DNA of 51,014 bases from a virus. Numbering within the stretch: the first letter of the stretch is position 1; every line of letters starts with the position of its first letter. The stretch spans positions 1-51,014 of the IMG/VR virus record IMGVR_UViG_3300020202_000013. One strand, given 5' to 3'. Shown one piece after another: positions 23,972-42,344 of the stretch. The notes under the pieces are model-generated. The model saw nothing but the letters and a program-made list of their open reading frames with translations, had not been told where the DNA came from and searched no databases. The position numbers and the translations under genes are program-made.

Positions 23972-24415
23972 ATGCCCGGACCTCTGAAAAACGCGCGCCA
24001 AGAGCGGTTTGCGCAGGAACTTGCGAAGGGCAGGTCGCAGGTCGATGCCTACCAGGCTGCCGGATACAAGCCGGATCGCGGGGCAGCGACGAGGCTGTCA
24101 GCAAATGTCAGCGTCGCGGCTCGGGTCGAAGAGTTGAAGGGGAGGGCCGCTGACAAGGCCGCCATCACCGTCGCCGACATCGCCCGCCAGCTCGACGACG
24201 ACCGGGCATTCGCCAAGGCGTGCAACTCTCCGGCTGCCATGGTCTCGGCCACGCTCGGCAAGGCGAAGGTCCTGGGCCTAATCAAGGAACGCCACGAGCA
24301 CACCGGCAAGGACGGGGCACCGATCGAGTATCGGAACCTGCCGGAGGAGGAGATCGACGCTCGTCTCGCAGCGTTGGCGGCGAAGAATGCTGAACCTCGC
24401 AAACTGGCCAATTGA
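23972..24415 (+). CDS. terS: Terminase small subunit
   Basis: A 147-residue protein with GGAGG eight bases upstream. The N-terminus (NARQERFAQELAKGRSQVDA, then YQAAGYKPDRGAATRLSAN) is the classic TerS helix-turn-helix (x-RFA-x-EL-x-KG-x-S-x-x-DAY-x-x-AGY). The C-terminal half is helical and would mediate oligomerisation. It overlaps the large subunit gene by 29 bases. It recognises the phage packaging site. Confidence 0.88.
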   Translation: MPGPLKNARQERFAQELAKGRSQVDAYQAAGYKPDRGAATRLSANVSVAARVEELKGRAADKAAITVADIARQLDDDRAFAKACNSPAAMVSATLGKAKVLGLIKERHEHTGKDGAPIEYRNLPEEEIDARLAALAAKNAEPRKLAN

Positions 24416-25919
24416 GGACAAGCGAGAGGCGCTTGCACTCCTCGAAGCGAAGGCTGCCCATGAGGAGCGCCGTCGCAGGGAAGCGGAACAGCAGCGCCTC
24501 CGCGAGACTGAGGGGCAGATCCGCGAGCGATGCCGGACCCTCTCCGGCTTCATCCGCGAAGCTTGGCACGTCCTCGAACCTTCGAACCCGTACATCCATG
24601 GCTGGCACGTCGACGCGATCGCCGAGCACCTGGAGGCAATCACCCACGGGCAGATCAACCGGCTGCTGATCAACGTCCCGCCCGGCACCATGAAATCGCT
24701 GCTGACGGGCGTTCTCTGGCCGGCTTGGGAGTGGGGACCGATGGGGAGGCCTGCCACCCGCATCATCGGCTCGAGCTATTCCGAGGATTACGCCAAGCGC
24801 GACAATCGGCGGATGCGCGACCTGGTGACGTCGGACTGGTATCGGGCTCTGTGGGGCGACACGGTGCAGCTGGTCCGCGCTGGCGAGATGGCGTTCAGCA
24901 ATACCGCGACGGGCTTCAGGCAGGGCATCCCGTTCTCGCGCCTCACCGGCGGCCGTGGTGATCGGGTGATTATCGACGACCCACACAGCGTCGACGGCGC
25001 CGAGAGCGAGGCTGAGCGCGGCAGCACCATCCGGACCTTTCGCGAATCCGTGCCCACCCGCCTCAATAACCCGAGCAAATCGGCGATCGTCGTCATCATG
25101 CAGCGGCTGCACGAGCAGGACGTCTCCGGGACCATCCTCGCGCTGAACCTCGGCTATGAGCACCTGATGCTGCCGATGGAGTTCGAGCCGGAGCGGGCCT
25201 GCCACACCAGCATCGGGTTCACGGATCCGCGCACCTACGATGGCGAGCTGCTGTTCCCGGAGCGCTTTCCCCGTGAGGTGGTGGAGCGCGACAAGGTCCC
25301 GATGGGCTCCTATGCGGTGGCAGGGCAGTTCCAGCAGCGCCCAACCCCTCGATCAGGCGGCATGTTCCAGCGTGGTGACTTCCAGATCGTGGATGCGGTG
25401 CCGGCCAAGGTGCAGCGTCGGGTGCGAGCCTGGGACTTCGCAGCGTCGAAGCCGAAGCCGGGGAAGCAGCCGGACTGGACCGTGGGGCTGCGGATGAGCT
25501 GGGCCGATGGTGTTTTTTACGTGGAGAGCGTGACGCGGGGCAGATGGGGCCCGGCCGACGTCGAACGGACGCTGAAGAACGTCGCCTCGCAGGACGGGCC
25601 GAGCGTCACCATCCGCATGCCGCAGGATCCCGGCGCTGCGGGCAAGGCCGACGCCGAGACCAAGGTGAAGCTGCTGCAGGGCTATGGGACGGTCGTGAAG
25701 CCGATCAGCGGCGACAAGGCGACCCGGGCGCGGCCGGCATCAGCGCAGGCGGAGGCGGGGAACGTGAAGCTGGTGCGCGGGGAGTGGAACGAGGCCTTCC
25801 TGGATGAGGTCTGCTCGTTCCCGAACAGCATGTTCGATGACCAGGTGGATGCGTTTGCCGATGCGCTTAACGAGCTGGCGCTGGGGTCGAGCTATAATAT
25901 TTTGAACGCGCTGACGTGA
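24387..25919 (+). CDS. terL: Terminase large subunit (ATPase and nuclease)
   Basis: A 510-residue packaging motor. After a charged N-terminal helix (12-50), the ATPase has a variant Walker A, NVPPGTMKS at 96-104, and Walker B VIIDD at 194-198. The nuclease domain starts with AWDFAAS (Asp350), and MFDDQVDAFADAL near the C-terminus supplies further acidic residues. It cleaves concatemers and translocates DNA through the portal. The start overlaps terS. Whether packaging is headful or cos cannot be read here. Confidence 0.93.
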   Translation: MLNLANWPIEDKREALALLEAKAAHEERRRREAEQQRLRETEGQIRERCRTLSGFIREAWHVLEPSNPYIHGWHVDAIAEHLEAITHGQINRLLINVPPGTMKSLLTGVLWPAWEWGPMGRPATRIIGSSYSEDYAKRDNRRMRDLVTSDWYRALWGDTVQLVRAGEMAFSNTATGFRQGIPFSRLTGGRGDRVIIDDPHSVDGAESEAERGSTIRTFRESVPTRLNNPSKSAIVVIMQRLHEQDVSGTILALNLGYEHLMLPMEFEPERACHTSIGFTDPRTYDGELLFPERFPREVVERDKVPMGSYAVAGQFQQRPTPRSGGMFQRGDFQIVDAVPAKVQRRVRAWDFAASKPKPGKQPDWTVGLRMSWADGVFYVESVTRGRWGPADVERTLKNVASQDGPSVTIRMPQDPGAAGKADAETKVKLLQGYGTVVKPISGDKATRARPASAQAEAGNVKLVRGEWNEAFLDEVCSFPNSMFDDQVDAFADALNELALGSSYNILNALT

Positions 25920-26347: not shown

Positions 26348-28756
26348 ATGGGCCTGATCACCACCCTCCGCGACGGCTTCGCCAACATCATGACCGGCAC
26401 CGGAACGTCTGTCGATAAGCGCGCATATGGCGGGTTTGTCCACGCCCCGATGTCGCCGCAGCAGATCGAGGCGGCCTACCGCGGTTCATGGCTGATGCGG
26501 AAAGCCATCAAGCGCCCAGCAAAGGACATGACCCGCGAGTGGCGCGATTGGCAGGCCGAAAAGCGCGAAATCACGTTCCTTGAAGCGGCGGAGCGGAAGC
26601 TCGGCCTGAGGGACAAGATCAGGCGGGCGCTCATCCTAGGGCGGCTTGGAGGCGGCGCGATCATCATCGGAGCCCCTCAGGGCAACCCGCTCCTCCCGCT
26701 CAACCTGAAGGCGATTGGCGAAGGTGGCCTGCGCTACCTTCACGTCGTCTCCCGCTGGCAGCTGACTCTTGGGCCAATGATCACCGACCCGGAGAACGAT
26801 CTGTGCGGACAACCGGAATACTTCGAATTGCACGGCTCTGGCGCCAGGGAGAAAATTCACCCCTCACGCGTGTTGGCATTTCGCGGCGAGCAAGTTCCAG
26901 AGATGGGCGTCGGCCGCTTCGATGACACGTTCTGGGGCGATAGTCTCGTGCAGGTCATTCACAGCGCCGTGCTGAACGCTGAGGCTGCCCAGAGCAATAT
27001 CTCAAGCCTGATCGACGAAGCGAAGATCGACGTCGTGAAGGTCAAAGACCTGATGGCGAACGCGGGCAGCAAAGAATACGAAACGGCTTTCATGCGTCGG
27101 ATCGAGCTCGCCCAGGCCGGGAAGAGCGTGCACCGCGCCCTGATCCTCGATTCCGAGGAGGATTGGCAGCAGAAGCAAATCACCTGGAATGGCATTCCGG
27201 ACGTGCTTCGGACCTACCTCGCGATCGTCGCGGGTGCTGCAGATATCCCGGCCACGATTCTGCTCGGCAAATCGCCGGACGGCATGAACGCCACGGGAGA
27301 TGCCGACTTCCGCGCCTACTACGATCAGATTCGATCGGACCAGGATAATGACCTGCGTCCCCTGATCGAGCGGCTAGACGAAGTCCTCATCAGATCGACA
27401 TTCGGCAGACCTCTCGCGGATGTGGGCTTCACCTTCGCGCCCCTGTGGCAGCTGGACGAGAAGGAGGCCGGGGAGGTTGAGAACAAGTTCGCGGACACGG
27501 TCACCAAGCTCGTCAACAGCGGCACCGTGCCCGTGGATGCGCTCTCAAAGGCCGTCCAGAACCGCATGGTCGAAAGTGGGCAGTGGCCAGGCCTGGATGG
27601 GGCGCTCGATGAGTCTGACGGCGAGCTGCCGGGCCAAGAGGAAGACGAGGCCGATCCCTCCGATCTTCAGGCTGCGAACGAGAACAACGTGGTCCAGCTG
27701 CGCCGCCGTGGGTCAATCACTGCCGACCAGGCAACCGCGCTCCTCACGGACGCCAAGCCACGCACCCTCTACGTCCAGCGCAAGCTCCTGAACGGGGCCG
27801 AATTCATCCGCTGGGCGAAGGGGGAGGGGTTCGAGACCACCACGCCCGCCGACGAGTTGCACGTCACCATCTGCTTCAGCCGCACGCCGGTCGATTGGAT
27901 GAAGATGGGCAGCGAGTGGAGCAGCAGCGAGGATGGCAAGCTGACCGTCCCTGCTGGCGGTGCGCGCCTGGTAGAGAAGCTGGGCGACAAGGGCGCGGTC
28001 GTGCTGCTGTTCGCCTCCTCCTCGCTCGCCTGGCGGCACGAGGACATGAAACGGAACGGGGCAAGCTTCGACTTTGACGAATATCAGCCGCACGTCACGA
28101 TTACCTATCAGGCACCGGCAGACCTCGATCTCTCCAAGGTCGAGCCCTTCCGCGGCAAGCTCGTGTTCGGGCCGGAGATCTTCTCCGAGGTGGAAGAGGA
28201 TTGGGAAAAGAGCCTCGTCGAAGACGGAGGTGGGCCGAACGCCGATCTCCCTTTCGCTGATGCGAAGCGGCGCCGTGGTGGGGGCGCAGGAAGCCGGCCT
28301 GGCTTCAACCAAGCGCAGCCTCGCGGTCGGGACGGGCGATGGGTCGAGACCGGCGCTGGTAAGACGAACATCCGAAGCCACGTTGCCAAGGCGCTGAAGG
28401 ACAAGACGTTCAAGCAGGACCATGAGTTCGGCCGCGTGACCGGCAACGCACCCCCGCACGTCATCGGCAGCCGGAGGGTGGCGAATGCTCAAGAGATCAG
28501 GAAGAACCACGGGCGGCATGGCGATCCGGTAACGGAGGCTGCTCGCGGACAGGCCCCGGTCACTGCTCGCGACTATGGCAGGATCCCGGAGATCACCGCG
28601 AAAGGCACCTATCGGGAGATCGGAACCAAGGGTGCCCGAAAGCCGGTTCGTGTCGAGTACCGGGTCCGCATCGGCAAGCACGAGTATGTCTACACGGAGA
28701 CGGTCGGGGCAGCGCGGCAAAGGGTCGCGCTCATCTCGCTGTACAAGAAGCTGTGA
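26348..28756 (+). CDS. Portal protein fused to Acb1-like 2H phosphoesterase and PBECR-like nuclease domains
   Basis: An 802-residue protein with three parts. Residues 1-420 are a DUF1073-type portal. After an acidic linker (421-450), residues 470-620 carry two H-x-T motifs, LHVTI (His505, Thr507) and PHVTI (His582, Thr584), the active site of 2H phosphoesterases. The spacing and surroundings match the anti-CBASS Acb1 group, which cleaves cyclic oligonucleotide signals. A basic linker (638-660) leads to residues about 670-802, containing DYGRIPEIT, VRVEYRVRIGKHEYVYTE and a RVALISLYKKL end. That matches the PBECR (barnase/EndoU/colicin/RelE-like) domains appended to phage head proteins. The portal forms the DNA gate; the extra domains may act after entry or during infection. 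Confidence 0.8.
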   Translation: MGLITTLRDGFANIMTGTGTSVDKRAYGGFVHAPMSPQQIEAAYRGSWLMRKAIKRPAKDMTREWRDWQAEKREITFLEAAERKLGLRDKIRRALILGRLGGGAIIIGAPQGNPLLPLNLKAIGEGGLRYLHVVSRWQLTLGPMITDPENDLCGQPEYFELHGSGAREKIHPSRVLAFRGEQVPEMGVGRFDDTFWGDSLVQVIHSAVLNAEAAQSNISSLIDEAKIDVVKVKDLMANAGSKEYETAFMRRIELAQAGKSVHRALILDSEEDWQQKQITWNGIPDVLRTYLAIVAGAADIPATILLGKSPDGMNATGDADFRAYYDQIRSDQDNDLRPLIERLDEVLIRSTFGRPLADVGFTFAPLWQLDEKEAGEVENKFADTVTKLVNSGTVPVDALSKAVQNRMVESGQWPGLDGALDESDGELPGQEEDEADPSDLQAANENNVVQLRRRGSITADQATALLTDAKPRTLYVQRKLLNGAEFIRWAKGEGFETTTPADELHVTICFSRTPVDWMKMGSEWSSSEDGKLTVPAGGARLVEKLGDKGAVVLLFASSSLAWRHEDMKRNGASFDFDEYQPHVTITYQAPADLDLSKVEPFRGKLVFGPEIFSEVEEDWEKSLVEDGGGPNADLPFADAKRRRGGGAGSRPGFNQAQPRGRDGRWVETGAGKTNIRSHVAKALKDKTFKQDHEFGRVTGNAPPHVIGSRRVANAQEIRKNHGRHGDPVTEAARGQAPVTARDYGRIPEITAKGTYREIGTKGARKPVRVEYRVRIGKHEYVYTETVGAARQRVALISLYKKL

Positions 28757-28856: not shown

Positions 28857-29654
28857 ATGACCGAGATTGACCTTCCGAAGCTGGTCCGGGCACGCGGCAT
28901 CCGGCGCACCATCACAATCCGCCCGATCATGCCGCCGCGCACGCTCGCCAAGGAGCTGCTGAACGCGCTCTACGCCCCGAGCATCAGAATGTGGGCAGCC
29001 GGGCTTGACCGGATCCTCGCCGCATACGAGCAGACGCTTTCGCAGCTGACCACGGACTCGCCGGCCGACATCGATCGGGAGATTGGCGCGTCGGCATCCG
29101 CCTTTGATCGCCTGCTCCTCGTTCTGACGCCGGCGCTGCGGAATTGGGGCGTGCGGGTCGAGCGCTGGCATCGCGGCCGATGGATTGCGAACGTGCTCTC
29201 GGCAACCTCGATCGACCTCGGCACCATGCTGACGATCGGGGACGTCGAGGAGACCGTGGACGTGGTGATCCGCCGCAACGTGTCGCTGGTCAGGGACGTG
29301 TCGGAGCAGGCAAGGGGCCGCATTGCCGATGCCGTGTTCCGAGGCGTGCAGCAGCGTACGCCAGTACGGGAGGTGGCGAAGGAGCTGCGCGAGGCGGTCG
29401 AGATGGGGCGCCAGCGGTCAATCCGCATCGCGGCGGATCAGGCGACGAAGCTCACCACCGCCCTCGACACCGAGCGCATGAAGCAGGCGGGCATCGAGAA
29501 GTGGGAATGGAAGCATTCGGGGAAGCTCCATCCCAGGCAGCAGCATCTGGCGCGGGATGGGAAGGTCTACACCTTCGACGATCCGCCCGCTGATATGCCT
29601 GGGGATCTGCCGTTCTGTGGGTGCCGGAAGCTCGCGGTGATCGAGTTGGATTAG
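28857..29654 (+). CDS. Head morphogenesis protein (Mu gpF / SPP1 gp7-like)
   Basis: A 265-residue minor head protein. The C-terminal third has the family pattern RSIRIAADQATKLTTALDTE, then RMKQAGIEKWEWKHSGKLHP, RQQHLARDGKVYTF and PFCGCRKLAV. The N-terminal two-thirds is helical. The gene immediately follows the portal, its usual place, and such proteins bind the portal inside the procapsid and may be ejected. The stop overlaps that of the convergent gene by four bases. Confidence 0.85.
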   Translation: MTEIDLPKLVRARGIRRTITIRPIMPPRTLAKELLNALYAPSIRMWAAGLDRILAAYEQTLSQLTTDSPADIDREIGASASAFDRLLLVLTPALRNWGVRVERWHRGRWIANVLSATSIDLGTMLTIGDVEETVDVVIRRNVSLVRDVSEQARGRIADAVFRGVQQRTPVREVAKELREAVEMGRQRSIRIAADQATKLTTALDTERMKQAGIEKWEWKHSGKLHPRQQHLARDGKVYTFDDPPADMPGDLPFCGCRKLAVIELD

Positions 29655-30186: not shown

Positions 30187-30219
30187 GCCGTAACGTCGAC
30201 CCGCCGCAATCGCCAAATT
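30187..30219 (+). promoter_or_regulatory. Late promoter-like element after the antisense cargo gene
   Basis: GCCGTAA (30187-30193), 20 bases, CAAATT (30214-30219). The ATG at 30228 is eight bases downstream after GCGGCCCC, as at the portal. It restarts rightward transcription after the leftward gene. Confidence 0.65.
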
Positions 30220-30227
30220 GCGGCCCC

Positions 30228-30350
30228 ATGGCGTCGGCGATCTACAATTCGACAATCGCAGAAGAGGCGCGGGCCTATTCTGGGAACCTCGGCTTCGCGA
30301 ATGGCGTGCTCCGGCCGGCGGTCACCCAGCACACCGGAGCTTATGCATGA
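30228..30350 (+). CDS. 40-residue hypothetical protein, predicted leaderless
   Basis: ATG 30228 to TGA 30350: MASAIYNSTIAEEARAYSGN, then LGFANGVLRPAVTQHTGAYA. It is soluble, with several aromatic and polar residues. It overlaps the next gene by four bases (ATGA). No ribosome site is seen; the start is just after a promoter-like -10 box. Function is unknown, perhaps a leader gene coupling translation of the next one. Confidence 0.5.
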   Translation: MASAIYNSTIAEEARAYSGNLGFANGVLRPAVTQHTGAYA

Positions 30351-31147
30351 TCCTCACAGCGCTCGCCATTGTCGCGGCCACACCATCGACGATCCATTCC
30401 GCTCTGTGGGAAGCCAAGCCTGGCGACACCATCAAGCTCACTGCGGGCGATTATGGTACGGTGACGATCAAGGACCGGAACTGGCCCAAGCGGATCACGC
30501 TCAACGCTTCCGGTGCCAAGCTAAGGCTGGTCATCCAGAACTCCAGCGGAATCTACGTCAATGGAGGCACTTTCGGGCCCAACATGGACGGCGCGGGTTA
30601 TGCGGCCCAGGTGCAACTCTCGAAGGATGTAACCTTCTACAAGTCGGCGTTTGTGAATAGCAAACGCGGGCTGGTGATCGATCGCTCGCAACGCGTGAAG
30701 GTCAGCTATGCCCGTTTCTCGGAGATGACGATCGATGGCGTCAACATCGCTCTCTCCCAGCAGGTGACCGTTTTGAACATCGTCTGCGAGAAGTTCGACA
30801 CTGGCGAGGCACACCCGGACTGCGTCCAGGGCTGGTCCAGGCCCGGCGGCATCACGTCCGATGTGCTGGTGGAAAAGGTGACTTTGAACGGGCCGAAGGT
30901 GCAGGGGATTTTCTTCGGCAATCATGTCCGCAACGGCGTCAATGACGGCGGCTACGACCGCATCGTCATCCGGAACAACTCAATCACCGGGTCCTATCCG
31001 CAGGGCATCGGCCTCTACGAGTGCCGCAACTGCGAGGTGACGGGAAATCGAGTGTCGACGCTACCCGGATCCAAGCATCGGGTGAGCATCAACATCGTTG
31101 GCGGGTCGGTGAAGGCCGAGAACAACAGCGTGGGGCCGAAGCCGTAG
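30347..31147 (+). CDS. Right-handed beta-helix protein with signal-like N-terminus
   Basis: A 266-residue protein, ATGA-coupled. The N-terminus (MILTALAIVAATPSTIHSAL) is hydrophobic and may be a signal peptide. The rest shows repeated short strands and Asn/Gly turns (GIYVNGGTF, GLVIDRSQRVKVSYARF, RIVIRNNSITGSYPQGIGLY) of a pectate-lyase-type parallel beta-helix. Such folds occur in phage tailspikes and polysaccharide depolymerases. Its place among head genes is unusual. It could be a head decoration, a glycan-binding protein or, given the signal, an exported lysogenic conversion factor. Confidence 0.7.
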   Translation: MILTALAIVAATPSTIHSALWEAKPGDTIKLTAGDYGTVTIKDRNWPKRITLNASGAKLRLVIQNSSGIYVNGGTFGPNMDGAGYAAQVQLSKDVTFYKSAFVNSKRGLVIDRSQRVKVSYARFSEMTIDGVNIALSQQVTVLNIVCEKFDTGEAHPDCVQGWSRPGGITSDVLVEKVTLNGPKVQGIFFGNHVRNGVNDGGYDRIVIRNNSITGSYPQGIGLYECRNCEVTGNRVSTLPGSKHRVSINIVGGSVKAENNSVGPKP

Positions 31148-41061: not shown

Positions 41062-41422
41062 CGGGGCGCGGACTGGTCCTGCTCCCTCTGAGCGGGTGTA
41101 CGGCCTGGCTACGCCTCCGGACCCCATCAAGCCCTTCACCCGCTACGGCACTCCCACCGTGCTTCCCGACCGCGCCTCCTGCGTCGATGGCAGCCGGATC
41201 TTGGTGACGCTCCACGCCTTCTCCGACGCCGACAGCGAGGACGAAGCTTCCGAGATCGCAGCAGCTATGGCGAGCGCGCTGGACGGTGCCACGCTGACCC
41301 TCGCAGCGGATTACGAAGCCAAGGCGCGGATTGCCTGGACTGGCGGCCAGATCCTGCCCGATCCGGAGGAAGCAAGCTCCTGGCATGCTGTCGTGAACTT
41401 CGAGGCGACGGTCACGAGCTAG
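41003..41422 (+). CDS. Tail terminator/completion protein (DUF3168-like)
   Basis: A 139-residue protein starting at GTG 41003, coupled to the previous stop (TAGTG). LPLRVAILTYLRADGART and the Pro-rich central region lead to a strand RILVTLHAFSDADSEDEASE and a helix, ending HAVVNFEATVTS. This order of elements matches the DUF3168 / lambda gpU-like tail terminator. It should cap the tail tube and join it to the head. Its 3' end overlaps the convergent cargo gene by 11 bases. Confidence 0.75.
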   Translation: MARDSSLPLRVAILTYLRADGARTGPAPSERVYGLATPPDPIKPFTRYGTPTVLPDRASCVDGSRILVTLHAFSDADSEDEASEIAAAMASALDGATLTLAADYEAKARIAWTGGQILPDPEEASSWHAVVNFEATVTS

Positions 41423-42344
41423 GTGGCGCGACGGCCTGCCCTATGGTTGCGCCGATCCGGTGCCTCAACTTGTTCCTCAGATCCTCCGGGTCGTCCCATA
41501 CGATATGATTGAACTGCCGCGTATCAAAATGCACGCGCTCGAGGTCTGACGACCTGACACACCAAATCACGGGTATGCCCAGTCCCAAGGCGAAACCGGC
41601 TTCGAAGTAGACGCCTCCACGAGCGCCGGTATCGCCGCAGCTGAAGTCGGCAACGACGAACCTAGCGCGTCGTATCTCGCTGATGATCTCATCATCGATC
41701 TTGTTGTTGTGTTCTCGATCATCGATGCGAACAGCCGTATATCCGTTTTCTTCGATCGCCGGACGGATACCGTCGGTGTACGCTGGCGACATCTCGCTCG
41801 AAAACCACATCGCGACAAAGCCGCTGGTGGACTCTGCATTCGGACGTTCCAGGTCTTCCACGTAGAAGAAAGCACGAAGGTTGACGGAAACTCGAGTGCC
41901 ACTCGTACTGAATTCCAGGTCCAGAAGCTTCTCCTGGGCGGCGTGATGAAGCAGTGTTCGCAGCTCCGCGACGCTTGAGACACCGGTTAATCGCATGAGC
42001 CCGTGTGGCTCTTCGGCTTCGGATATGAACAAGCGCGAATGGTGAGAGGAGGCAGACCGTACGAGAGTGCGAAGCAGCCGATCGAATTTCTGCTTCATCG
42101 GGACTGGTGGCTGCCGCAATATCTGTTTGATATTCCACGTCATCAACTCGACAGGATCTTCCCCAGCGTTGTCGAGGATATAGCGAGTGAGCGCGGTCCG
42201 GTGTTTGGTGAGTAGATCGGGCATGGCCGACAGCAAGCTTCCGCTTACAAAATAGCGCTCATTGCCTCCGAGCCGGGCCTCGAGACCGTCCCGGCTTGAG
42301 GGCACAATGACGTCATCGGGCCAAAGTAGCTTCTTTGCTGGCAT
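41412..42344 (-). CDS. Antisense cargo gene with nucleoside deoxyribosyltransferase/TIR-like C-terminal domain
   Basis: A 310-residue protein. The N-terminal 170 residues are mainly helical and contain a possible regulatory or sensing part. Residues 175-285 read GFVAMWFSSEMSPAYTDGIR, then a second helix, IDDEIISEIRRARFVVADFS, GGVYFEAGFALGLGIPVIWC and ends QFNHIVWDD. Strand-helix order with FVAM, VADFS (Asp233) and YFEAG (Glu248) is that of nucleoside 2-deoxyribosyltransferase or TIR-like enzymes used by bacterial defence proteins. It sits on the opposite strand between tail genes. Role in immunity is inferred. Confidence 0.68.
   Translation of the reverse strand: MPAKKLLWPDDVIVPSSRDGLEARLGGNERYFVSGSLLSAMPDLLTKHRTALTRYILDNAGEDPVELMTWNIKQILRQPPVPMKQKFDRLLRTLVRSASSHHSRLFISEAEEPHGLMRLTGVSSVAELRTLLHHAAQEKLLDLEFSTSGTRVSVNLRAFFYVEDLERPNAESTSGFVAMWFSSEMSPAYTDGIRPAIEENGYTAVRIDDREHNNKIDDEIISEIRRARFVVADFSCGDTGARGGVYFEAGFALGLGIPVIWCVRSSDLERVHFDTRQFNHIVWDDPEDLRNKLRHRIGATIGQAVAPPSS

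What the first reader, a model, noticed from the sequence alone, without database searches (positions are those of the whole stretch)
26348..28756. Portal protein carrying both an Acb1-like anti-CBASS domain and a PBECR-like nuclease
The 802-residue protein has an N-terminal portal, then two H-x-T motifs (His505/Thr507 and His582/Thr584) in an Acb1-type 2H phosphoesterase context. A C-terminal domain follows with the DYGRIPEIT...YTETVGAARQRV...LYKKL pattern of PBECR nucleases. Acb1 enzymes degrade cyclic nucleotides used by CBASS immunity, and PBECR domains are known as effector modules on phage structural proteins. A portal is present in 12 copies at the DNA vertex, so fused effectors could be carried in the virion or be active late in infection. 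The combined three-part layout is the strongest candidate for an unusual system in this window.
Basis: partly seen in the sequence, partly recalled or inferred. Interest (0 to 1): 0.85.

Follow-up and report, generated by a model that had tools for sequence, protein, structure and literature searches.

The report
Phage portal carrying two enzyme cargoes
A phage's DNA-gate (portal) protein has two extra enzyme-like domains on its tail, one resembling an enzyme that destroys bacterial alarm molecules and one resembling an RNA-cutting nuclease; each add-on is already known on portals and they are swapped freely between phages, but having both on one portal is rare.

Summary
Window 26348-28756 (+) encodes an intact 802-aa protein: portal (Pfam Phage_portal_3, residues 38-387, E 1e-96), Acb1 2H phosphoesterase (PF23474, 472-621, E 2e-40; H505/T507 and H582/T584 align with T4 Acb1's catalytic tetrad), and a C-terminal PBECR3-like nuclease (708-800). 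The PBECR call is below Pfam's cut-off for this protein alone but is confirmed through relatives (59.9 bits against a motif-free profile; best of 5,000 shuffles 13.9), active-site residues and predicted fold. Portal-2H and portal-PBECR fusions were reported in 2017 and portal-Acb1 is common, so this is a rare combination of known modules. Of 138 portals surveyed, 55 carry Acb1 alone, 4 PBECR alone, 2 both, about what independent assortment predicts; one more three-part protein (L252) was found outside that set. Cargo changes repeatedly on the portal tree; the window's Acb1 is 84% identical to one on a portal only 41% identical. Best reading: the portal C-terminus is an effector docking site. 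Anti-CBASS activity, RNase activity and virion delivery are untested; two T4 Acb1 base-contact residues are not conserved. Unexpected: a header peptide, [FY][DN]xxQPR[DG]xxG[RK]W, precedes PBECR and recurs in many phage head and effector proteins.

The parts
26348..28756 (+). Three-part portal gene, 802 aa: portal - Acb1 - PBECR3-like
   Evidence: Open frame; Pfam domains
26459..27508 (+). Portal domain, Phage_portal_3/DUF1073 (residues 38-387)
   Evidence: Pfam E 1.1e-96; TIGR01555 249 bits; Pam3 portal 8hds E 3e-124 over residues 9-623
27761..28210 (+). Acb1-like 2H phosphoesterase domain (residues 472-621)
   Evidence: Pfam PF23474 E 1.6e-40; FBB1 Acb1 7t26 E 2e-10 by sequence, TM 0.76 by structure
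27860..27868 (+). First H-x-T motif, H505-V-T507 (T4 Acb1 H44/T46)
   Evidence: Alignment; H in 60/60 and T in 59/60 portal Acb1 domains
28091..28099 (+). Second H-x-T motif, H582-V-T584 (T4 Acb1 H113/T115)
   Evidence: Alignment; H in 59/60 and T or S in 59/60
28211..28351 (+). Low-confidence, probably flexible linker between Acb1 and the nuclease (about residues 622-668)
   Evidence: pLDDT below 50 over most of 627-763 in the full-length model, whose alignment is thin for the C-terminal domain; residues 637-653 also below 50 in the isolated tail model
28304..28342 (+). Header motif FNQAQPRGRDGRW (residues 653-665)
   Evidence: Present before PBECR in the PBECR-bearing portal proteins examined and in no Acb1-only or plain portal held; widespread in viral head/effector proteins
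28469..28747 (+). PBECR3-like nuclease domain (residues 708-800); predicted active-site His724 (or His721) and Ser797
   Evidence: Pfam 23.1 bits, below cut-off 30; 59.9 bits to relatives' profile without the motif; His and Ser/Thr columns conserved; model: helix 714-724, last four strands 754-758, 767-775, 778-787, 792-801
24387..25919 (+). Large terminase (context)
   Evidence: Pfam Terminase_6C E 8e-12
28857..29654 (+). Minimal MuF head protein without effector tail (context)
   Evidence: Pfam Phage_Mu_F E 1e-14, 265 aa
31192..32391 (+). DUF2213 head maturation protease (candidate processing enzyme)
   Evidence: Pfam DUF2213 E 3e-55; phrog_530 E 1e-82

Best explanation
The C-terminal tail of the DUF1073-family portal is a swappable effector docking site, and this phage has filled it with two known modules in series. 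Shown: an intact fusion; an Acb1-type 2H fold with a complete H-x-T/H-x-T tetrad; a PBECR3-like fold with the family's His and Ser; low-confidence linkers between the domains; repeated change of cargo among related portals. Inferred: (1) the tail hangs from the portal crown on the inside of the head; (2) the Acb1 domain hydrolyses small cyclic oligonucleotides made by CBASS-type defences by the metal-free two-step 2H mechanism; (3) the PBECR domain is a metal-independent endoRNase; (4) both act on the host, from the late pool of portal subunits during assembly and probably also from about 12 copies carried in the virion, the tail possibly being freed by the co-encoded head maturation protease. 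Steps 1-2 are the more likely; step 4 is the least certain.
For: Domains and catalytic residues. Structure: portal and Acb1 match Pam3 portal and FBB1 Acb1; the tail matches viral nuclease and polyvalent proteins. Tetrad intact in 58 of 60 portal Acb1 domains, T/S allowed, which argues for catalysis. Modularity: 36 cargo-label changes on the tree of 138 portals, at least 24 forced by well-supported branches for Acb1; window Acb1 84% identical to L007's, portals 41%. The same PBECR module sits on MuF proteins (L181, L182; L309), as a separate ORF beside the portal in Rhizobium phage RHph_N28_2, and on portals without Acb1. E217's portal carries an InPase domain at the same end, and its cryo-EM model covers only residues 97-528 of 765 (PMC10329688). 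The Pam3 portal is 621 aa but 442 residues are in the model. Both fit a tail that is flexible or removed in the particle. L020 (and its near-copy L022) carries a prohead protease domain between portal and Acb1.
Against: No activity or virion data. T4 Acb1 W74 is E543 here (E, D or Q in all 60 portal domains) and E141 aligns with S613, though E614 is adjacent, so CBASS nucleotides may not be the substrate. The PBECR match is below Pfam's cut-off, and no solved BECR structure matched significantly (best E 0.07). Portal subunits are not known to be ejected whole. Some 'no cargo' labels in the tree may be contig ends or unrecognised tails.
Confidence: 0.55

Rival explanations
1. The effectors act only in the producing cell. 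The tail is simply co-expressed with the portal late in infection, when CBASS-type alarms are raised, and virion carriage is incidental.
For: The gene lies in the late head operon. Acb1 in T4 works from inside the infected cell (PMC9117128). Tail residues are absent from the E217 and Pam3 portal models.
Against: The same modules sit on MuF proteins, described as head components whose fused enzymatic domains are likely delivered into the host (PMC5512222); a late RNase free in the producing cell could harm phage production.
Confidence: 0.3
2. The two enzymes act in sequence on RNA: PBECR cuts RNA leaving 2',3'-cyclic phosphates and the 2H domain opens those ends, blocking host RNA repair.
For: 2H enzymes process such ends and metal-independent RNases make them (PMC5512222); Acb1 itself works through a cyclic phosphate intermediate (PMC9117128); base-contact residues W74 and E141 are changed here.
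Against: Co-occurrence is not enriched: 57 of 138 portals carry Acb1 and 6 carry PBECR, which predicts about 2.5 with both; 2 were seen (counts). Most portal Acb1 domains stand alone.
Confidence: 0.1
3. The tail is a structural or assembly extension with relict enzymatic folds and no catalysis.
For: Phage Mu MuF carries an inactive PBECR domain (PMC5512222).
Against: Catalytic tetrad intact in 58 of 60 domains and PBECR His and Ser/Thr kept in all relatives aligned; closely related portals lack the tail altogether, so it is not needed for assembly.
Confidence: 0.12
4. The fusion is an assembly or sequencing artefact.
For: The window is a single virus record.
Against: The same order occurs in other contigs, L026 and L252/L306, and portal-PBECR and portal-Acb1 proteins occur in bacterial genomes.
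Confidence: 0.01

Closest known systems
Pam3 portal protein (PDB 8hds) and the portal-Acb1 group (phrog_146)
   Same: Portal followed by an Acb1 domain in one chain, aligned over residues 9-623
   Different: No PBECR domain; second motif is H-x-S in Pam3
PBECR-portal and 2H-portal fusions of Iyer et al. 2017 (PMC5512222)
   Same: Each of the two cargo types fused to a portal; proposed as effectors carried with the virion
   Different: The passages read describe the two fusions separately; whether that paper's figure shows both on one portal could not be seen
T4 and FBB1 Acb1 (PMC9117128; PDB 7t26, 7t27)
   Same: 2H fold, H-x-T/H-x-T tetrad, Y12, F107 and W147 equivalents
   Different: T4 Acb1 is a separate small protein; W74 is E543 here and E141 aligns with S613
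E217 (Pbunavirus) portal gp19
   Same: Same portal family with an enzyme domain at the C-terminus, absent from the cryo-EM model
   Different: The cargo is an inorganic-pyrophosphatase-like domain
MuF-PBECR head proteins (L181, L182, L309)
   Same: Same kind of PBECR module on a MuF-type head protein
   Different: Carrier is MuF, not the portal

Membership tests
Phage_portal_3 / DUF1073 portal | Full-length profile match above the curated cut-off | tested here: met
   324 bits against 33.8
Acb1 (PF23474) | Profile match above the curated cut-off | tested here: met
   138.6 bits against 27
Acb1 (PF23474) | H-x-T/H-x-T catalytic tetrad | tested here: met
   H505, T507, H582, T584
Acb1 (PF23474) | 2H fold of the solved Acb1 | tested here: met
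   Model matches 7t26, E 6e-8, TM 0.76 by target length
Acb1 (PF23474) | Base-contact residues of T4/FBB1 Acb1 (Y12, W74, F107, E141, W147) | tested here: inconclusive
   Y475, F576 and W619 kept; W74 is E543; E141 aligns with S613 next to E614
Acb1 (PF23474) | Cleaves CBASS cyclic di/trinucleotides and protects the phage | not testable with these tools
   Needs enzyme and plaque assays
PBECR3 (PF18812) | Profile match above the curated cut-off | tested here: not met
   23.1 bits against 30 for this protein; relatives reach 51.9 (L102), 33.0 (L002), 30.2 (L055). Filed here as PBECR3-like
PBECR3 (PF18812) | Homology to accepted members | tested here: met
   59.9 bits to a motif-free profile of seven relatives, three of which pass the Pfam cut-off
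PBECR3 (PF18812) | His in N-terminal helix and Ser/Thr in C-terminal strand | tested here: met
   His724 (or His721) in helix 714-724; Ser797 in strand 792-801
[quoted passage not shown]
   Model order helix then four strands, mean pLDDT 76; matches viral nuclease/polyvalent models
PBECR3 (PF18812) | Endoribonuclease activity | not testable with these tools
   Needs an assay

The most novel reading that the evidence does not exclude
The 13-residue header [FY][DN]xxQPR[DG]xxG[RKQ]W that stands before the PBECR domain is a general tag of phage head-carried effectors: a packaging or protease-processing signal shared by portals, MuF proteins, prohead proteases and toxins of many tailed phages, so that effector modules bearing it can be moved between carriers.
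Probability: 0.35. Interest if true: 0.75.

Novelty: new variant of a known kind. Interest (0 to 1): 0.5.

Why it matters
If the tail enzymes are active, phages use an essential structural protein, present in 12 copies at the DNA gate, as a carrier for anti-defence enzymes, and swap the cargo while keeping the portal. That gives a direct, testable system for whether structural-protein fusions deliver enzymes into new hosts. The header peptide would give a way to find phage effectors by sequence and to ask how cargo gets into heads.

Tried and rejected
Single-sequence scan of viral contigs with the C-terminal domain found no relatives; it was replaced by profiles and by the portal survey. Fold search of the PBECR model against the PDB gave nothing significant. 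Coupled function of the two enzymes was considered and not favoured because co-occurrence is not enriched. Assembly artefact was rejected. PADLOC gave no defence match for the portal. A literature search for six spellings of the header motif found nothing, and none was found for portal-Acb1 fusions as such; the library is partial. Profile scores of about 15-30 bits of unrelated motif-bearing proteins to the PBECR alignment mostly reflect the motif and were not counted as PBECR. A sliding-identity script failed and was not needed.

Full report
WHAT IS THERE. The ORF at window 26348-28756 (+) is intact and encodes 802 aa. Pfam places Phage_portal_3 at 38-387 (E 1.1e-96), Acb1 PF23474 at 472-621 (E 1.6e-40) and PBECR3 PF18812 at 708-800 (E 7.4e-5, 23.1 bits, below the 30-bit cut-off). 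NCBIfam TIGR01555 and phrog_146 agree on the portal, and phrog_146 itself spans portal plus Acb1. The gene lies between a large terminase and a minimal MuF protein, followed by a DUF2213 head maturation protease and the major capsid protein. The record is a 51-kb virus sequence with an integrase (phrog_1), so the phage is probably temperate.

ACB1 DOMAIN. H505/T507 and H582/T584 align with H44/T46 and H113/T115 of T4 Acb1, the catalytic tetrad of PMC9117128. Y475, F576 and W619 match Y12, F107 and W147; W74 is E543 and E141 aligns with S613 beside E614. Among 60 portal-linked domains the tetrad is complete (T or S allowed) in 58. One exception is a truncated sequence and the other has T46 replaced by A. 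Position 74 is E, D or Q in all 60. The predicted structure matches FBB1 Acb1 (TM 0.76 by target length). So the domain is an Acb1-family 2H enzyme that looks catalytic, in a sub-group whose substrate pocket differs from T4 Acb1 at one stacking position. Whether it cleaves CBASS nucleotides is untested.

NUCLEASE-LIKE DOMAIN. The Pfam match is below its cut-off for this protein, but relatives bridge it: L102 scores 51.9 bits, RHph_N28_2 33.0 and L055 30.2. A profile from seven relatives with the shared linker motif removed scores the window 59.9 bits against 13.9 for the best of 5,000 shuffles. [quoted passage not shown] Here His724 (or His721, the alignment leaves both possible) closes helix 714-724 and Ser797 lies in the last strand. 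The isolated-domain model has mean pLDDT 76 and matches viral models named 'Nuclease' and polyvalent ADP-ribosyltransferase, TMq about 0.6; nothing in the PDB matched significantly. In the full-length model this domain is poorly predicted, as expected with few tail sequences in the alignment.

MODULARITY. Portal relatives were collected from virus contigs, phage records and bacterial genomes. Of 138 distinct portals, 77 had no recognised cargo, 55 Acb1, 4 PBECR and 2 both (window, L026). A further three-part protein, L252, is 5'-truncated and was found by the motif search; a near-copy lies in another contig, L306. On the portal tree the labels need 36 changes, and well-supported branches alone force at least 24 for Acb1. 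Some 'none' labels may be contig ends. The window's closest portal, L136 (55%), has no recognised cargo, while its closest Acb1 (L007, 84%) sits on a portal only 41% identical. Sister portals RHph_TM3_3_3 (Acb1) and RHph_N28_2 (no Acb1, PBECR as the next overlapping ORF) differ in cargo. The PBECR domain of the window does not find those of L026 or L252 by BLAST at E 1e-3, so the three-part layout probably arose at least twice. Independent assortment predicts about 2.5 double carriers among 138; 2 were seen. There is no sign that the two enzymes are selected to act together.

WHAT OTHER CARGOES SAY. E217's portal (same family) carries an inorganic-pyrophosphatase-like domain at residues 635-753, and its cryo-EM model covers residues 97-528 of 765. 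The Pam3 portal chain is 621 aa by sequence but 442 residues in the structure, so its Acb1 domain is apparently not modelled; I could not read that paper. L020 and its near-copy L022 have a prohead protease domain between portal and Acb1. L206 joins portal, Acb1 and MuF in 1,505 aa. The PBECR module also sits on MuF proteins.

HOW IT PROBABLY WORKS. Shown here: fusion, folds, catalytic residues, low-confidence linkers and cargo turnover. Inferred: the tail lies on the head side of the portal; Acb1 removes cyclic-nucleotide alarms; PBECR cuts RNA; both serve the phage late in infection and perhaps at entry, possibly after release by the head protease. I put the effector-docking reading at 0.55 and production-cell-only action at 0.3.

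THE HEADER MOTIF. Residues 653-665, FNQAQPRGRDGRW, stand between Acb1 and PBECR. The motif is present in the PBECR-bearing portal proteins aligned and in none of the Acb1-only or plain portals held. L055 and L056 were found through a pattern containing it, so only the others count as unselected; even so, window, L026, L038, L059, L102, L169 and L002 are 7 of 7. MuF-linked copies do not all have it (L181, L182 and L309 lack a recognisable one). All 80 loci listed encode it in frame, and positions the pattern leaves free are conserved: Pro at +2 in 79 of 94 and Thr/Ser after the Trp in 67 of 94, followed by a Gly-rich stretch. The 72 proteins scanned include ADP-ribosyltransferases (13 members for the commonest family), MuF, four portal families, prohead proteases, zeta toxins and Acb1. 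In L203 one copy precedes each of two ART domains. No literature mention was found for six spellings, but the library is partial. This is the most novel lead, and its function (packaging, processing or mere linker) is open.

VERDICT. Each fusion type was described before (PMC5512222). The double cargo is rare but not surprising given free module exchange. New variant of a known kind; interest 0.5.

Noticed in passing
window 28304-28342; loci L185-L264: Header motif [FY][DN]xxQPR[DG]xxG[RKQ]W shared by phage portals, MuF proteins, prohead proteases and many effector domains; often several copies per protein or in adjacent genes.
   Followed up: partly
window 41412-42344 (-): 310-aa gene on the opposite strand inside the tail region, matching a TIR effector model (PADLOC E 2.5e-11) and weakly nucleoside deoxyribosyltransferase; possible prophage-borne defence gene.
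   Followed up: partly
L020:509-2890, L022:3-2228: Portal with a prohead serine protease domain between portal and Acb1: a possible built-in release device.
   Followed up: partly
L206:8551-13065 (-): 1,505-aa protein joining portal, Acb1 and MuF with the header motif near the end.
   Followed up: partly
L304:9124-11418 (phage E217 gp19): Portal of a structurally solved phage carries an InPase domain at the same end; the cryo-EM model stops before it.
   Followed up: partly
L002:5367-5885: In Rhizobium phage RHph_N28_2 the PBECR ORF overlaps the portal 3' end in another frame; the database annotation starts it later. Recent split or frameshift.
   Followed up: no
L180, about position 1549: A MuF-PBECR protein in a bacterial genome has an in-frame TAG inside the header motif; probably a decayed prophage.
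   Followed up: no
window 30218-31147 (+): Right-handed beta-helix protein encoded between MuF and the head protease (Pfam Beta_helix), an odd place for such a gene.
   Followed up: no
L116:622-3894: 1,091-aa portal-Acb1 protein with about 430 further residues matching no Pfam family.
   Followed up: no
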